Below, piece after piece: positions 3,323 through 31,084 of a stretch of 64,000 nt of DNA. Within the stretch, counting starts at the first letter, position 1. The number at the start of each line of letters is the position of its first letter. The translations under genes were made by a program, and so were the position numbers. The notes under the pieces were generated by a model that had not been told where the DNA came from, ran no database searches, and saw nothing but the letters and a program-made list of their open reading frames with translations. Source of the stretch: an uncultured Solirubrobacteraceae bacterium (GTDB lineage Bacteria; Actinomycetota; Thermoleophilia; Solirubrobacterales; Solirubrobacteraceae); NCBI GenBank assembly GCA_902806175.1, contig CADCVQ010000073.1, positions 1 through 64,000 of the forward strand. Direction: 5' to 3'.

Positions 3323-4279
3323 TTATCCGAACGTGAAGGCGTACGCCTCGGCGCCAGGCGCGGCGAACGTGATTTGCAGCGTCCGGTCGCGGACCGGGTC
3401 GTGCTGGCGCACGAGCTGGTACATGCGAGCGTTGTCGAGCACGCCGTTGCCTTCCTCGTCGACGTCCACGCCGTGTGACGCGCCCGGAGCCTCGCCGTCG
3501 AGGAGCACCCGGAAGGAAATCGGCTCTCGCGCTCGGTGCGCGAGCACGAGATGCGCGTCGCGCGCGTGGAACCCGAAGGCGATGCTGCCGCCGGCCTGGT
3601 CGAGCACGACGTTCTCACGTTCGATCGTCCACTCGCCGGCGAGCGCCCAGTGGTTTGAGCGCAGGCGCTCGGGGAGCACGTAGGCGCGGCGTTCGTCGGG
3701 CGCGACGACGCCGCCTGGTGACGCGACGTGCTCGCCGCGCGAGTAGCCGAGATACGTCTCGGGCGTGCGCAGGTGATCCCAATCGGCCGCCGCCTCCACG
3801 CCGCGACCTTCGACGCAGACCAGCTCACGCTCCACGCCGAGCAGCCGCTGGATGACGCGCTCGGAATCCGCGTAGCGCCCTTCACCGAAGTGGTCATCGC
3901 GGATGATGCCGCCGCGATCGGCGAAGTACAGCGCCGGCCAGTAGCGGTTGGCGAAGGCGCTCCAGATCGCGTAGTCGTTGTCGACCGCAACCGGGTAGTC
4001 GATCGCCCGCTCCTCGGTCGCGCGGCGCACCCCCTCGACGTCGTGCTCGAACGAGAACTCCGGCGTGTGGACGCCGATGACGACCAACCCGTCGTCTCGA
4101 TAGGCCTGCGACCACGCGCGGACGTAGGGCTCCTGGCGCAACCAGTTGATGCACGTCCATGTCCAGAAGTTCACGAGCACGACTTGGCCGCGCAGCTCAG
4201 CGGGACCGAGTGGCTCGGAGTTGAGCCACGCGGTCGCGCCGGCGAACGAGGGCATATGCGCACGCCCGAACAGGGTCAT
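3323..4279 (-). CDS. DipZ-like thioredoxin-fold protein lacking the second active-site Cys
   Basis: The 318-residue protein has an N-terminal redoxin/thioredoxin fold (VVLVNFWTWTCINWLR, then VIGVHTPEFSFEHD and YPVAVDNDYAIWSAFANRYWPALYF) and a C-terminal beta-rich domain like that of DipZ/TlpA-type proteins (ALAGEWTIERENVVLDQAGGSIAFGF). The active site usually reads FWTYTCINCLR. Here the second Cys is Trp (C43-I-N-W46), leaving a monothiol site. There is no obvious signal peptide. ATG 4277-4279 lies two bases after the stop of the upstream epoxide hydrolase with no separate Shine-Dalgarno, so translation is probably coupled; ATG 4253-4255 is an alternative. A decayed second copy follows the second epoxide hydrolase. 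Confidence 0.85.
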   Translation of the reverse strand: MTLFGRAHMPSFAGATAWLNSEPLGPAELRGQVVLVNFWTWTCINWLRQEPYVRAWSQAYRDDGLVVIGVHTPEFSFEHDVEGVRRATEERAIDYPVAVDNDYAIWSAFANRYWPALYFADRGGIIRDDHFGEGRYADSERVIQRLLGVERELVCVEGRGVEAAADWDHLRTPETYLGYSRGEHVASPGGVVAPDERRAYVLPERLRSNHWALAGEWTIERENVVLDQAGGSIAFGFHARDAHLVLAHRAREPISFRVLLDGEAPGASHGVDVDEEGNGVLDNARMYQLVRQHDPVRDRTLQITFAAPGAEAYAFTFG

Positions 4280-4281
4280 TG

Positions 4282-5529
4282 CTAGCGCAGCGATCGGAAC
4301 GTCGCGCGGACGTCTTCAGAGAGCAACTGCGGCTGTTCCCAGGCGGCGAAGTGCCCGCCCCTGTCGTGCTCGTTGTAGTAGACGAGATTGGGGTACGCCT
4401 GCTCAGCCCAGCTGCGCGGAACCCGGTAGACCTCGTCCGCGAAGGTGCTCACGCCGACCGGGGTCTTGACGCCCTTGACCGAGATGGGGGGGAGCTTGCT
4501 CTCCCAGTACAGCCTCGCCGAGGACACCCCGGTGTTGGTCAGCCAGAAGAGCGTGATGTTGTCCAGCAGGTCGTCGCGCGTGAGGTCGCTCGGCCTCTCG
4601 AGACGCTCCTCGAGGACCTGCTGAACCAGCCCGGGCTGCCCGCTCCCGTCGCCGTGGTCGAGCATGAACGCCGCGAGATCGACGGGTGAGTCCGCCAGCC
4701 CGTAGAGCGTCTGCGGGCGCGTGCTCATGACGAGGCCGTACGCCGCGTGCGTCGCAAAGAAGGTGCGCAGCTGCTCGTAGGTGCTCAGCGCCTCGCCGGA
4801 AAGGCCAACCGGCGCCGGAGCGCCGATGAAGGACGCGGTGAAGAGGTCCGGCGGAATCACGCCGCCCAGGTTGGTGTGGATGCCGATCAGCTCCGGCGGC
4901 GCAGGCTCAGCTGCCGCTGGGTCGGTGCGGCCGCCGGCCATCACGTCGGCGACGATCGCCCCCCAGTCGCCGCCCTGCGCCGCGAACCGCTCGTAGCCCA
5001 GGCGCTTCATGAGCTCGACGTAGGCCTTCCCGATGCGCACGGGATCCCAGCCCGTCGTGGTCGGCTTGCCGGAGAAGCCGTAGCCGGGCATCGAGGGGAT
5101 CACGACATGGAAGGCGTCCGACGCGTTCGCGCCGTGCGCGGTGGGATCGGTGAGCGGGCCGATGAGCTTCAGCTGCTCGACGATCGACCCCGGCCATCCG
5201 TGGCAGACGACCAACGGAAGCGCGTCCTCCTGCTTGGAGCGAACGTGAACGAAGTGGATGTCCAGCCCGTCGATCTCGGTGATGAAGTTCGGAACGTCGT
5301 TCAGCCGCGCCTCGCACTTGCGCCAGTCGTACTCCGTCAGCCAGTAGCGAGCAAGGTCCTGCATGAGCGCGAGCTGCACGCCCTGCGAGTCATCCTCGAC
5401 GGTCTCCTTCTCGGGCCAGCGCGTCGCAGCGATACGGGCGCGCAGGTCCTCGAGGTCCGCCGCGGGAGCGTCGATCGTGAACGGGCGGATCGTTGTATCG
5501 CCCGCTGACTTCTCGGCCACGATGGCCAT
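4282..5529 (-). CDS. Epoxide hydrolase-family alpha/beta hydrolase (copy 1)
   Basis: The 415-residue protein opens with an epoxide-hydrolase N-terminal (EHN) region (IRPFTIDAPAADLEDLRARI) and continues as an alpha/beta hydrolase: oxyanion motif HGWPG (110-114), nucleophile Asp188 in GGDWG, cap Tyr residues, and catalytic His near residue 393 in GGHFAAWEQP. This matches soluble and microsomal-type epoxide hydrolases that open epoxides to diols. The real substrate is unknown. A GGAGGGA Shine-Dalgarno precedes the ATG. It is closely similar throughout to the copy at 7012-8256. A 47-bp block 40 bases upstream is shared by both copies and is probably a promoter or operator. Confidence 0.9.
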   Translation of the reverse strand: MAIVAEKSAGDTTIRPFTIDAPAADLEDLRARIAATRWPEKETVEDDSQGVQLALMQDLARYWLTEYDWRKCEARLNDVPNFITEIDGLDIHFVHVRSKQEDALPLVVCHGWPGSIVEQLKLIGPLTDPTAHGANASDAFHVVIPSMPGYGFSGKPTTTGWDPVRIGKAYVELMKRLGYERFAAQGGDWGAIVADVMAGGRTDPAAAEPAPPELIGIHTNLGGVIPPDLFTASFIGAPAPVGLSGEALSTYEQLRTFFATHAAYGLVMSTRPQTLYGLADSPVDLAAFMLDHGDGSGQPGLVQQVLEERLERPSDLTRDDLLDNITLFWLTNTGVSSARLYWESKLPPISVKGVKTPVGVSTFADEVYRVPRSWAEQAYPNLVYYNEHDRGGHFAAWEQPQLLSEDVRATFRSLR

Positions 5530-6758: not shown

Positions 6759-7011
6759 TCAGCGACGGACAGCAGTCCGAGCGTCCGGTTGGGCGACGGT
6801 TTCGCGGTCTGGCAGTTTCCAGTCTGGCCGCGGGAAGTGGCAGGTGTAACCGTTTGGGTATGGCTCCTGGCGCAGCCAGTTGATGCACGTCAGCGTCCAG
6901 AAGCTCACGACGATGACATGACCGCCCAGCTCGGCGGGGCCGAGCGGCTCGAGTTGAGCCACCCGGTTCGCCCGTCGAGTGAGGGCAAGTGCACGCGAGT
7001 TGACGCGTCAC
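6759..7011 (-). pseudogene. Chimeric remnant: redoxin N-terminus fused to the MsrA C-terminus
   Basis: Directly downstream of epoxide hydrolase 2, this segment matches the start of the redoxin at 3323-4279 ([41 protein letters not shown]). It then switches at the shared Tyr to the MsrA tail ([17 protein letters not shown]). One base is lost between WLNS and LEPLGP, breaking the frame. A GTG at 6960-6962 could still express about 67 residues. The junction shows that a redoxin/epoxide-hydrolase block was duplicated and that most of the redoxin, together with the msrA front, was deleted. It keeps the unusual CINW site. Confidence 0.8.
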
Positions 7012-8256
7012 CTAGCGAAGCGAACGGAGCCCCGCGCGCAGTTCGGATGCGTACAGCTCCGGCTGCTCCCAGGCGGCGAAGTGCCCACCCTTGTCGACCT
7101 CGTTGAAGTGGATGAGGTTGGGGTATGCCTGCTGCGCCCAGCTGCGCGGCGCCTGGTAGACCTCGTCGGGGAAGACGCTCACGGCGACCGGAACGGTGAC
7201 GTTCCGGACGGCGACGTAGCTGCCCTTGTCCTGGTGCAGCCACTCCCAGTACAGCCGGGCGGCGGAGATCCCCGTGTTCGTCAGCCAGAACAGCGTGATG
7301 TTGTCGAGGACGTCGTCGCGGGTCAGGCCTTCCTGGGCGCCATCGACGAAGACGCGAGAGATCAGCTCCAGGCTCATCGCGTCGTGGTCGAGCATGTACG
7401 CCGCCAGGTCGATCGGTGAGTCGGACAGTCCGTACAGCGTCTGTGGCCGCGACCCCATCTCGGCCCCGTACGCCACGTGCTGATAGAGGAAGGCCAGCTG
7501 CTCTGTCGTGCGTCGTTCGTCGTCTGAGAGATCGGACGGCAGCGGCCTGCCGGTCTGGATCGCCCTGTCGATCTCGGGCGGAACCACCCCCGGAAAGTTG
7601 GTGTGGATCCCGAGCAGCTCCGGGGGAGCCGGCTCAACGGCGTCCGGATCGTCCCGGCCGCCGGCCATCACCTCGACGACGACCCCGCCCCAGTCGCCGC
7701 CCGCCGCCACGAACTGCGCGTAGCCGAGGCGCTTCATCAGCTCGAACCACGCACCCGCGATGCGGATCGGGCCCCACCCGGTCGTGGACGGCTTGCCCGA
7801 GAACCCGTAACCCGGCATGTTTGGGATCACCACGTGGAAGGCGTCCGACGCGCTGCCGCCATGCGCCGTCGGATCGGTAAGCCGATCGACGAGCTTCATC
7901 TGCTCGACGAACGAACCGGGCCATCCGTGCGTGACGATCACCGGCAGCGCATCCTCGTGCTTGGAACGCACGTGAACGAAGTGGATGTCCAGCCCATCGA
8001 TCTCGGTGATGAACTGTGGGACTGCGTTCAGCCGCGCCTCGCACTTGCGCCAGTCGTACTCCGTCAGCCAATAGCGCGCGAGTGCCTGCATCGTCGCCAG
8101 CGGCACGCCCTGCGAGAAGTCGTCGACGGTCTCTTTCTCGGGCCAGCGCGTCGCAGCGATACGGGCGCGCAGGTCCTCGAGGTCCGCCGCGGGGGTCTCG
8201 ATCCTGAACTGGCGGATGGCGGTGTTGTCCGCTGGGGTTTGGACCGTGGCAGCCAT
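7012..8256 (-). CDS. Epoxide hydrolase-family alpha/beta hydrolase (copy 2)
   Basis: This 414-residue paralogue of the enzyme at 4282-5529 keeps the EHN region, HGWPG, nucleophile Asp in GGDWGG, PNMPGYGFSGKP and the catalytic His in KGGHFAAWEQPE. Differences cluster in the cap region, suggesting altered substrate range. AAGGAGGA precedes the ATG. The conserved 47-bp block lies 37 bases upstream, and a small membrane ORF and the divergent LuxR regulator follow beyond it. The duplication is old enough for the paralogues to differ throughout but not for either to have lost its catalytic residues. Confidence 0.9.
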   Translation of the reverse strand: MAATVQTPADNTAIRQFRIETPAADLEDLRARIAATRWPEKETVDDFSQGVPLATMQALARYWLTEYDWRKCEARLNAVPQFITEIDGLDIHFVHVRSKHEDALPVIVTHGWPGSFVEQMKLVDRLTDPTAHGGSASDAFHVVIPNMPGYGFSGKPSTTGWGPIRIAGAWFELMKRLGYAQFVAAGGDWGGVVVEVMAGGRDDPDAVEPAPPELLGIHTNFPGVVPPEIDRAIQTGRPLPSDLSDDERRTTEQLAFLYQHVAYGAEMGSRPQTLYGLSDSPIDLAAYMLDHDAMSLELISRVFVDGAQEGLTRDDVLDNITLFWLTNTGISAARLYWEWLHQDKGSYVAVRNVTVPVAVSVFPDEVYQAPRSWAQQAYPNLIHFNEVDKGGHFAAWEQPELYASELRAGLRSLR

Positions 8257-22498: not shown

Positions 22499-24244
22499 TC
22501 AGACGCCGCCGGCCGGGGCCACCTCGAAGCTGAAGATCATCCCGCTCTCGTGGTGCTCGGCGATGTGGCAGTGCGCCATCCAGGTGCCGGGGTGGGTGAC
22601 GTCGAGCAGGAGGTCGAGCTCGTCGCCCGGCAGGACCAGCACCGTGTCCGTCCACACGAGGTTGGGCTCCACGACGCCGTCGCGCGTAAGCACCAGGAAT
22701 CGTCCCGCGCCGTGGATGTGGAACGGGTGGTGCATCGGGTGGTCGGACTCCATCTCGTTGACGAGGCGGATCTTGACCTGGTCTCCGACCTGGAACTTCC
22801 AGTCGACGTCCGAGCCTGCCGCGCCCGTCTGGCGGTCGATGAGCTTCCAGCGCGTGTTCGTCGGGTTCGTCCCGCGGTTGACCTCGACCATGTCGTCTTC
22901 CCACTCGATCGCCCCCGCGGCGTGGGCGTGGTCCTCACCGTCGCCATGCTCGTGGGCTGCGGGCGCCGCGGCGTCGGCGTCGCCGTCGCCGTCGCCGTCG
23001 CTGTCGAGCTCTGTTCGCGGCATGAGCTTCATCGCGCATTTCGGGCACTTGCCGGGCTCGGCGCTGACGACCTCGGGATGCATCGGGCAGAAGTAGACGA
23101 CTTCCGCGGCCCGCGGCATGAGCTTCATCGCGCACTTCGGGCACTTGCCGGGCTCGGCGCTGACGACCTCGGGATGCATTGGGCAGAAGTAGACGATGGC
23201 GCCCTCGGGCTGCTCGAAGTCCATCTCGGCGACGAGCGCGACGACCTTGTCGGGCTCGCGCTCGATATGCGCTGCGATGCGCTCGCGCTCGGCGACCATC
23301 TCAGGGTTCGTGCGCAGGCGCTCGAACGCCTCGGCCGGCACCGGATCGTCATGCTCTCCGGCGACGGCGATTCGTCCCAGGTCGTAGACGCGCTCCGGCG
23401 TGACGTGCTGCAGCAACGTGTCGCCCTCGGTGTCGAACAGCACGTCGACGACGAGCCGCTCAGACGGCGCGACGATCGCAGACTCGATGTGCTGCTCGTG
23501 CTCGCAGCGTCCGCTGTCACCACCGACCAGCTTCATCCGCGCGCCGCGGAAGACCACGTTGAACACGCGCGTGTTGGCGGTGTTGGTCAGATAGAAGCGG
23601 ATCACCTCGCCGCGCCTCGCAGCCAGCGCGATCTCGGTCTCGCCGGCGACCAGGAGCTGGTTGCCGAAGCGGCCCATAGCCGAGTACGTCGTGTGCGCGC
23701 GCTCAAACGGCGCTACGCGGCCATCCCCGATGAGGATGTCGTCCAGCGTGAGCGGCATCTCGCGGTGCGCCGGCGGCCAGTAGTCCGGATCGCGCGGGAC
23801 CACGAGGATGCTGCCGTACAGGCCCATCTCCTGCGCGTAGTCCTGCCTGACGTGCGGGTGGTACCAGTACGCCCCCGGGTCCGGGAACTCGAGGTGATAC
23901 TCGAAGCTCTCACCGATGCCCATCGGGCGCTGCACCGCGTGCGTCCCGTCATAGCGGTTGTCAAGCCGCAGCCCGTGCCAGTGAACGGTAGCCTCGAGGT
24001 CGCCATGGTTCGTGGCGTTGATCGTCACGCCGGAGCCCTCGGCGACCTTCAGCGTCGGCCCGGGAATGGAGCCGTTGTACGCGAGCATGCGCACTGTCGT
24101 ATCGCCGATCCGCTTGGACACCGGCGCGATCGTCAGGTCATAGGAGTCGCCGTCAGCCAGCTCGACAAGCTCGGGCGCAACTGCCGGCGCGAGTCCTGCA
24201 GCGTTATCCGGGAACCGCCCGGATCGGTCGGTCTCCACGCTCAT
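22499..24244 (-). CDS. Multicopper oxidase with two internal heavy-metal-binding modules
   Basis: The 581-residue protein has cupredoxin domains with all four copper-ligand blocks: HWHG (about 87), YWYHPHVRQDY (about 125), HPMHHPFHIHG (about 497) and HCHIAEHHESGM (about 556), as in CopA/CueO-like oxidases. Between the second and third cupredoxin domains lie two almost identical heavy-metal-binding repeats, each CPMHPEVVSAEPGKCPKCAM, then an acidic/His linker (HEHGDGEDHAHA). This suggests copper binding or delivery coupled to oxidation, for example cuprous oxidase detoxification. There is no Tat signal at ATG 24242-24244, so it may be cytoplasmic. It is divergent from the cyclase-YHS gene. Confidence 0.9.
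   Translation of the reverse strand: MSVETDRSGRFPDNAAGLAPAVAPELVELADGDSYDLTIAPVSKRIGDTTVRMLAYNGSIPGPTLKVAEGSGVTINATNHGDLEATVHWHGLRLDNRYDGTHAVQRPMGIGESFEYHLEFPDPGAYWYHPHVRQDYAQEMGLYGSILVVPRDPDYWPPAHREMPLTLDDILIGDGRVAPFERAHTTYSAMGRFGNQLLVAGETEIALAARRGEVIRFYLTNTANTRVFNVVFRGARMKLVGGDSGRCEHEQHIESAIVAPSERLVVDVLFDTEGDTLLQHVTPERVYDLGRIAVAGEHDDPVPAEAFERLRTNPEMVAERERIAAHIEREPDKVVALVAEMDFEQPEGAIVYFCPMHPEVVSAEPGKCPKCAMKLMPRAAEVVYFCPMHPEVVSAEPGKCPKCAMKLMPRTELDSDGDGDGDADAAAPAAHEHGDGEDHAHAAGAIEWEDDMVEVNRGTNPTNTRWKLIDRQTGAAGSDVDWKFQVGDQVKIRLVNEMESDHPMHHPFHIHGAGRFLVLTRDGVVEPNLVWTDTVLVLPGDELDLLLDVTHPGTWMAHCHIAEHHESGMIFSFEVAPAGGV
23021..23196 (-). repeat. Tandem 80-bp direct repeat encoding the metal-binding modules
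   Basis: The segments 23021-23100 and 23117-23196 match at 78 of 80 bases with a 96-bp period (32 codons, in frame). The near identity at DNA level implies a recent duplication or ongoing gene conversion inside the multicopper oxidase gene. A GCCGTC-type short repeat encoding an Asp-rich linker lies just beside it, at about 22976-23004. Confidence 0.85.
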
Positions 24245-30874: not shown

Positions 30875-30880
30875 CGAACG

Positions 30881-31045
30881 AGTGGTCCGTCTCGTGACGG
30901 GCCGCCTGAAAACCCGGGATGCCGGCGCCGGCTGGCAAGGACGCAGGACCGAAGGTGTGGCTCTGCCACATCGAGTGTCCGAGGACGCCGCCAGGCGGTG
31001 ATCGGCGCCCGGGGTTTCAGGTGGACTGTTATGAGACGGGCCACT
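30881..31045 (+). ncRNA. 165-nt structured inverted repeat downstream of sucD
   Basis: The arms 30881-30918 and 31008-31045 pair over 38 positions: 31 Watson-Crick, 5 G-U and 2 mismatches (30901 and 30912). All five wobbles are G-U in a plus-strand transcript, so the structure is better preserved in RNA of the sucCD sense. The 89-nt interior holds a perfect palindrome GCCGGCGCCGGC (30921-30932), a hairpin TGTGGC-tct-GCCACA (30956-30970) enclosed by GGAC/GTCC (30946-30949 and 30977-30980), and CCGC-cag-GCGG (30988-30998). It may be a 3' UTR element, terminator, independent small RNA or a MITE-like insert. There is no coding potential. Confidence 0.6.
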
Positions 31046-31084
31046 AGCTCGCGCGACCCGCGAGCGCGACGCCGGGCAGCAGCG

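What the first reader, a model, noticed from the sequence alone, without database searches (positions are those of the whole stretch)
30881..31045. Large structured RNA-like element right after sucD with strand-biased pairing
Two 38-nt arms pair at 36 of 38 positions around an 89-nt interior that holds at least two further hairpins and a 12-bp palindrome. Five of the seven departures from perfect complementarity are G-U pairs in plus-strand RNA; on the minus strand they would be A-C mismatches. This suggests a folded transcript in the sense of sucCD rather than a neutral DNA palindrome. A plain terminator does not need this size. Alternatives are a MITE-like insertion or a 3' UTR-derived small RNA. 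I know of no described family with this layout.
Basis: partly seen in the sequence, partly recalled or inferred. Interest (0 to 1): 0.72.

Follow-up and report, generated by a model that had tools for sequence, protein, structure and literature searches.

The report
IS630-linked folded mobile repeat family
The hairpin after sucD is one of about 22 copies in this genome of a small non-coding jumping element that probably borrows the enzyme of a resident insertion sequence, and its unusually conserved folded centre recurs, with different outer arms, across several classes of actinobacteria.

Summary
The element is not tied to sucD. A covariance model finds 22 copies in this genome, at least 150 in one closed Thermoleophilia chromosome, and copies in 26 of 296 sampled Actinomycetota genomes; Rfam has no match. 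Four congeners lack it after sucD.

Copies are about 162 nt from GTG to CAC, usually flanked by TA within CTAG. Their ends resemble terminal repeats of IS630-family transposons in the same genome or family (24/30 here, 23-25/30 in relative G009). Best explanation: a MITE-like element mobilised in trans by an IS630-type transposase.

Two things exceed a plain MITE. The centre (GGCAAGGACGCA...CGAGGACGCC) is conserved in copies with unrelated arms. The arms covary and prefer G-U over A-C on one strand (299:110 in outer arms of 102 non-redundant copies). So a single-stranded fold of one polarity is probably selected. What it does, and whether as RNA or single-stranded DNA, is unknown; outside FR_37 the G-U strand lies mostly antisense to co-directional neighbours, which argues against a simple 3' UTR element. 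A new variant of a known kind.

The parts
30881..31045 (+). Full-length palindromic element, subfamily A; the plus strand is the strand with G-U pairs
   Evidence: 13 near full-length copies by BLAST, 22 by covariance model
30881..30930 (+). 5' outer arm; its start resembles the terminal repeat of IS630-family element L325 of G009 (15 of first 18 nt)
30997..31045 (+). 3' outer arm, pairs with 30881-30930
30931..30936 (+). 5' strand of inner stem P2 (GCTGGC)
   Evidence: covariation in A2, 85% of cells paired
30937..30945 (+). 5' strand of the conserved purine-rich internal loop J2, AAGGACGCA
   Evidence: at least 94% identity per position in 212 copies selected by their arms alone
30946..30980 (+). 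P3 stem and central hairpin; tandem G.A/A.G pairs in many relatives
30981..30989 (+). 3' strand of J2, GAGGACGCC
   Evidence: at least 90% identity per position in 212 arms-selected copies
30990..30996 (+). 3' strand of P2 (GCCAGGC)
31045..31046 (.). TA at the 3' boundary, part of CTAG; at the 5' boundary (30880-30881) the dinucleotide is GA, a likely decayed TA
   Evidence: 26 of 51 scored copies carry TA on both sides

Best explanation
The sequence is a non-coding mobile element of the MITE/ERIC kind, about 162 nt long, inserted at TA within CTAG next to a stop codon. Its arms act as terminal inverted repeats recognised in trans by a co-resident IS630-family (Tc1/mariner-type) transposase, so arm sequences differ between lineages. 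Shown: dispersed copies, presence/absence at sucD, TA flanks, near-fixed length, IS630-like ends in the same genome or family, conserved centre, covariation, strand-biased G-U pairs. Inferred: transposition by that enzyme. Also inferred: one strand must fold, as RNA or single-stranded DNA, with the conserved G.A-rich centre needed for persistence or spread of the element rather than for sucCD.
For: 22 copies in own genome; matches in 15 of 41 genomes (own plus 40 relatives); 26 of 296 phylum genomes; at least 150 copies in FR_37. Four congeners have sucD without the element. TA on both sides in 26 of 51 copies, modal length 162. The own IS630 transposase L321 is followed by an end matching subfamily B 24/30, first 18 of 18; intact IS630 L333 in G009 matches that genome's elements 23-25/30; IS L325 matches the window element 15/18 at the start. 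Full-length covariation 0.513 against 0.184 shuffled and at most 0.126 slid; core 0.359 against 0.127. Outer-arm G-U:A-C 299:110 non-redundant, 69 versus 16 copies, p 5e-9. J2 conserved in copies chosen by arms alone.
Against: The own-genome IS630 copy shows only a right end; the left end was not found, so it may be a relic. Only some genomes with elements have a detected IS630 relative. FR_37 elements carry different ends (GAGCTCGTTTC, AGGCTGTTGAA) with no IS found, and an IS1182-like query failed there. A direct TSD cannot be separated from terminal TA because CTAG is palindromic. No transcription or transposition data.
Confidence: 0.74

Rival explanations
1. Host-functional structured RNA (3' UTR stabiliser, sRNA or regulator) that was secondarily spread by a transposon; the core is retained because the host or a host protein uses the RNA.
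For: Strand-specific G-U preference, conserved wobble positions and covariation; conserved core across classes; many copies directly follow a gene end; short-armed copies without long terminal repeats exist.
Against: Copy number 1 to over 150, unrelated loci, absent from most sampled genomes; no constant neighbour gene; outside FR_37 co-directional neighbours are antisense 53:18, and in FR_37 there is no bias, 18:17.
Confidence: 0.3
2. An ordinary MITE whose palindrome is only long terminal repeats, with no selection on the fold.
For: MITE features and IS630-like ends.
Against: Conserved centre and length with unrelated arms, covariation, G-U over A-C asymmetry.
Confidence: 0.15
3. The folded strand is single-stranded DNA used by a hairpin-recognising HUH (Y1/RAYT-like) transposase on the lagging strand.
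For: Folding of one strand is favoured; nested insertions at one core site and tandem arrays.
Against: No Y1_Tnp in 13 of the 15 element-bearing genomes, the own one included; no replication-strand bias in FR_37, 53:66; IS630-like ends instead.
Confidence: 0.06
4. Intrinsic (possibly bidirectional) transcription terminator of sucD.
For: Position after a stop codon between convergent genes.
Against: No T-tract or terminator-like site; congeners lack it.
Confidence: 0.04

Closest known systems
RUP of Streptococcus pneumoniae (IS630-Spn1-linked MITE; PMC2229807)
   Same: Small, non-coding, TA target, ends resembling those of an IS630-family element, intergenic, about 100 copies.
   Different: Here GC-rich, 162 nt instead of 107, and a folded centre is conserved across classes while arms differ; no sequence relation to RUP was tested.
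ERIC/IRU and Correia/NEMIS elements (PMC2229807, PMC10969869)
   Same: Roughly 100-200 nt mobile repeats with TA termini and stable predicted stem-loop transcripts, often near gene ends.
   Different: Different hosts; bacterial elements of this kind are described as mostly A+T-rich; I found no description of a strand-specific wobble preference or of this G.A-rich core for them.
REP/BIME elements with RAYT (Y1) transposases (PMC2817692)
   Same: Multi-copy extragenic palindromes, some in arrays.
   Different: No Y1 transposase in the own genome; longer single unit; IS630-like ends.

Membership tests
Bacterial MITE (as in PMC2229807) | Small, about 100-200 bp, non-coding, dispersed copies | tested here: met
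   Modal body 162 nt, 22 copies, 3 of 156 copies inside called ORFs
Bacterial MITE (as in PMC2229807) | Terminal inverted repeats with TA at the termini | tested here: met
   26 of 51 copies TA on both sides; nearly the whole body is an inverted repeat
Bacterial MITE (as in PMC2229807) | Target site duplication | tested here: inconclusive
   CTAG is its own reverse complement; no clean empty site was recovered
Bacterial MITE (as in PMC2229807) | Ends similar to an autonomous IS | tested here: met
   IS630-family ends 23-25 of 30 identical in G009, 24 of 30 in own genome
Bacterial MITE (as in PMC2229807) | A+T-rich | tested here: not met
   Element cores are 54-81% GC; the review gives this as true of most, not all, elements
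Bacterial MITE (as in PMC2229807) | Mobilised in trans by the IS transposase | not testable with these tools
   Needs a transposition assay
REP/RAYT system | Associated Y1 (PF01797) transposase | tested here: not met
   Absent from 13 of 15 element-bearing genomes, the own one included
Rfam 15 RNA families | Match to a curated covariance model | tested here: not met
   No match at gathering threshold in the window; at relaxed E no match to the element above a gathering score in 18 loci
Intrinsic terminator | GC hairpin followed by a T tract | tested here: not met

The most novel reading that the evidence does not exclude
The conserved centre is an independent folded selfish RNA (or single-stranded DNA) unit that persists by acquiring the terminal repeats of whatever transposons a host lineage carries: IS630-like ends in Solirubrobacteraceae and other, unidentified ends in FR_37, so the arms are exchangeable while the core and the total length are nearly fixed.
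Probability: 0.3. Interest if true: 0.78.

Novelty: new variant of a known kind. Interest (0 to 1): 0.58.

Why it matters
Bacterial MITEs are usually treated as leftovers of transposons, short-lived and lineage-specific. This one keeps a folded centre and a near-fixed length over several classes of Actinomycetota while its ends follow the local IS. If the fold is needed for spread, non-autonomous elements can carry selected nucleic-acid structure of their own, which is directly testable with a transposition assay. It also gives a covariance model for annotating a repeat that reaches at least 150 copies in one chromosome and is absent from Rfam.

Tried and rejected
Rfam at gathering and relaxed thresholds: nothing for the element. 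Phage and plasmid collections: no match. Viral contigs pattern: two hits (L174, L175) that look like chance matches in coding DNA without the stems, judged by reading the sequence. Y1/RAYT mobiliser: rejected. Replication-strand bias: none in FR_37. A search of fetched DNA for a larger element sharing the arms found copies, core-less or truncated copies and one group II intron insertion, but no autonomous partner; the partner emerged only from transposase searches. An IS1182-like query in FR_37 gave nothing. The pairing register inside J2 was examined through coupled changes (A2/G7 to C/A in FR_37; A5/G4 to C/A in G308 and G161) and remains suggestive only. Literature searches found no description of this family.

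Full report
Observation. The 165 nt at 30881-31045 form the palindrome described: over the outer 38 nt, 31 Watson-Crick pairs, 5 G-U pairs and 2 mismatches. The plus strand folds at -122.4 kcal/mol (z -11.4), the minus strand at -87.0 (z -5.4), neither reached by any of 200 shuffles. The predicted fold is one long rod with a central hairpin. It starts 6 nt after the sucD stop and ends before a convergent gene with a spore photoproduct lyase domain.

It is a repeat family. BLAST in the own genome finds 13 near full-length copies and nine more that match the query only over the core. They fall into three subfamilies with different arms but the same centre and the same outermost ends. A covariance model of the core (R1, from 81 diverse sequences) finds 22 copies in the own genome, copies in 26 of 296 genomes sampled over the phylum, and at least 150 (the scoring cap) in the closed Thermoleophilia MAG FR_37. 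Four congeners have sucD with other sequence after it, so the sucD position is incidental.

Fold and selection. Alignment A3 of 23 full-length copies gives 95.3% of cells paired over 59 pairs, covariation score 0.513 against 0.184 in shuffles and at most 0.126 in slid controls. The core alignment A2 gives 0.359 against 0.127 and at most 0.138. These controls do not fully remove relatedness, and the A3 structure was derived from the same alignment. A strand-neutral alignment of the two arms shows G-U exceeding A-C on the core-sense strand: 299 to 110 in outer arms of 102 non-redundant copies, 69 copies against 16. The internal loop J2 (AAGGACGCA / GAGGACGC) was used as a search seed, so its invariance in A1 and A2 is partly by construction; in 212 sites located by their arms, without reference to the core, each J2 position is still 90-100% conserved. 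The arm queries did come from core-selected copies.

Mobility. Of 51 copies with clear GTG/CAC ends, 26 have TA on both sides and the modal length is 162. Tandem copies share one CTAG (L160). In FR_37, elements with GAGCTC ends sit repeatedly inside J2 of other copies and in tandem arrays with period about 164. Core-less and truncated copies exist.

Mobiliser. Y1 transposases are absent from the own genome. The own genome has one IS630-family (DDE_3) transposase, and shortly after its stop (about 25-42 nt) lies an end that matches subfamily B at 24 of 30 positions including the first 18. Relatives hold IS630-family elements with uninterrupted frames ending in CTAGTG. In G009 the ends of IS L333 match that genome's own elements at 23-25 of 30; IS L325 matches the start of the window element at 15 of 18. 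Best matches exceed shuffled ends, P 0.004 or lower for the strongest cases, though other IS ends tested are weaker, P up to 0.07, and no multiple-test correction was made. The simplest reading is trans-mobilisation with arms that follow the resident IS.

What remains open. Outside FR_37, copies between co-directional genes lie antisense 53:18 (crude gene caller), against a plain 3' UTR RNA, but FR_37 shows 18:17. Whether the selected fold acts as RNA or single-stranded DNA, and why J2 is conserved, cannot be decided here. Conserved G-U wobbles at fixed positions (for example columns 45-122 and 47-119 of A3) lean towards RNA; that is inference.

Comparison. By the criteria of the review PMC2229807 it fits bacterial MITEs except for base composition, with the duplication untested, and the RUP/IS630-Spn1 pair is the nearest parallel. 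I found no described family with this core in Rfam or the papers searched; subscription literature was not searchable.

Noticed in passing
L288:3350-5270 (FR_37): A group II intron with reverse transcriptase/maturase (RF02001, RF00029, PF08388, PF00078), apparently frame-disrupted, sits inside the J2 core of a nested palindromic element.
   Followed up: partly
L283:12529-12853, L273:4194-4518, L276:11323-11646, L068:5800-6260: Russian-doll insertions: elements with GAGCTC ends lie inside the 5' strand of J2 of other copies, at the same spot each time.
   Followed up: partly
L034, L085, L099, L100, L161: Copies whose end reads GGAGG...CACTGATG or similar on the other strand, apparently supplying a Shine-Dalgarno sequence right before a start codon.
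   Followed up: no
L039, L127: Two different genomes carry a copy between guaB-like and guaA-like genes; in L039 the guaA frame reads through it.
   Followed up: no
L219, L226 (own genome C86, C2): Two copies share an extra structured domain of roughly 50-60 nt in the 3' half of the core.
   Followed up: no
L323:1162-2750 (own genome C64): An IS with a DDE_Tnp_1 transposase (ends TAGGACTTCGTTAGG) abuts the CTAG end of a core-less palindromic element and is itself flanked by CTAG.
   Followed up: partly
loci: Outside FR_37 the strand with G-U pairs lies antisense to co-directional neighbour genes about 3:1; unexplained.
   Followed up: partly
window 4124-5184 and 6858-7911: Segmental duplication, start-to-start about 2.73 kb, 72-84% identical.
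   Followed up: no
window 23016-23196: Near-identical tandem copies of 85 nt (98%), spacing 96.
   Followed up: no
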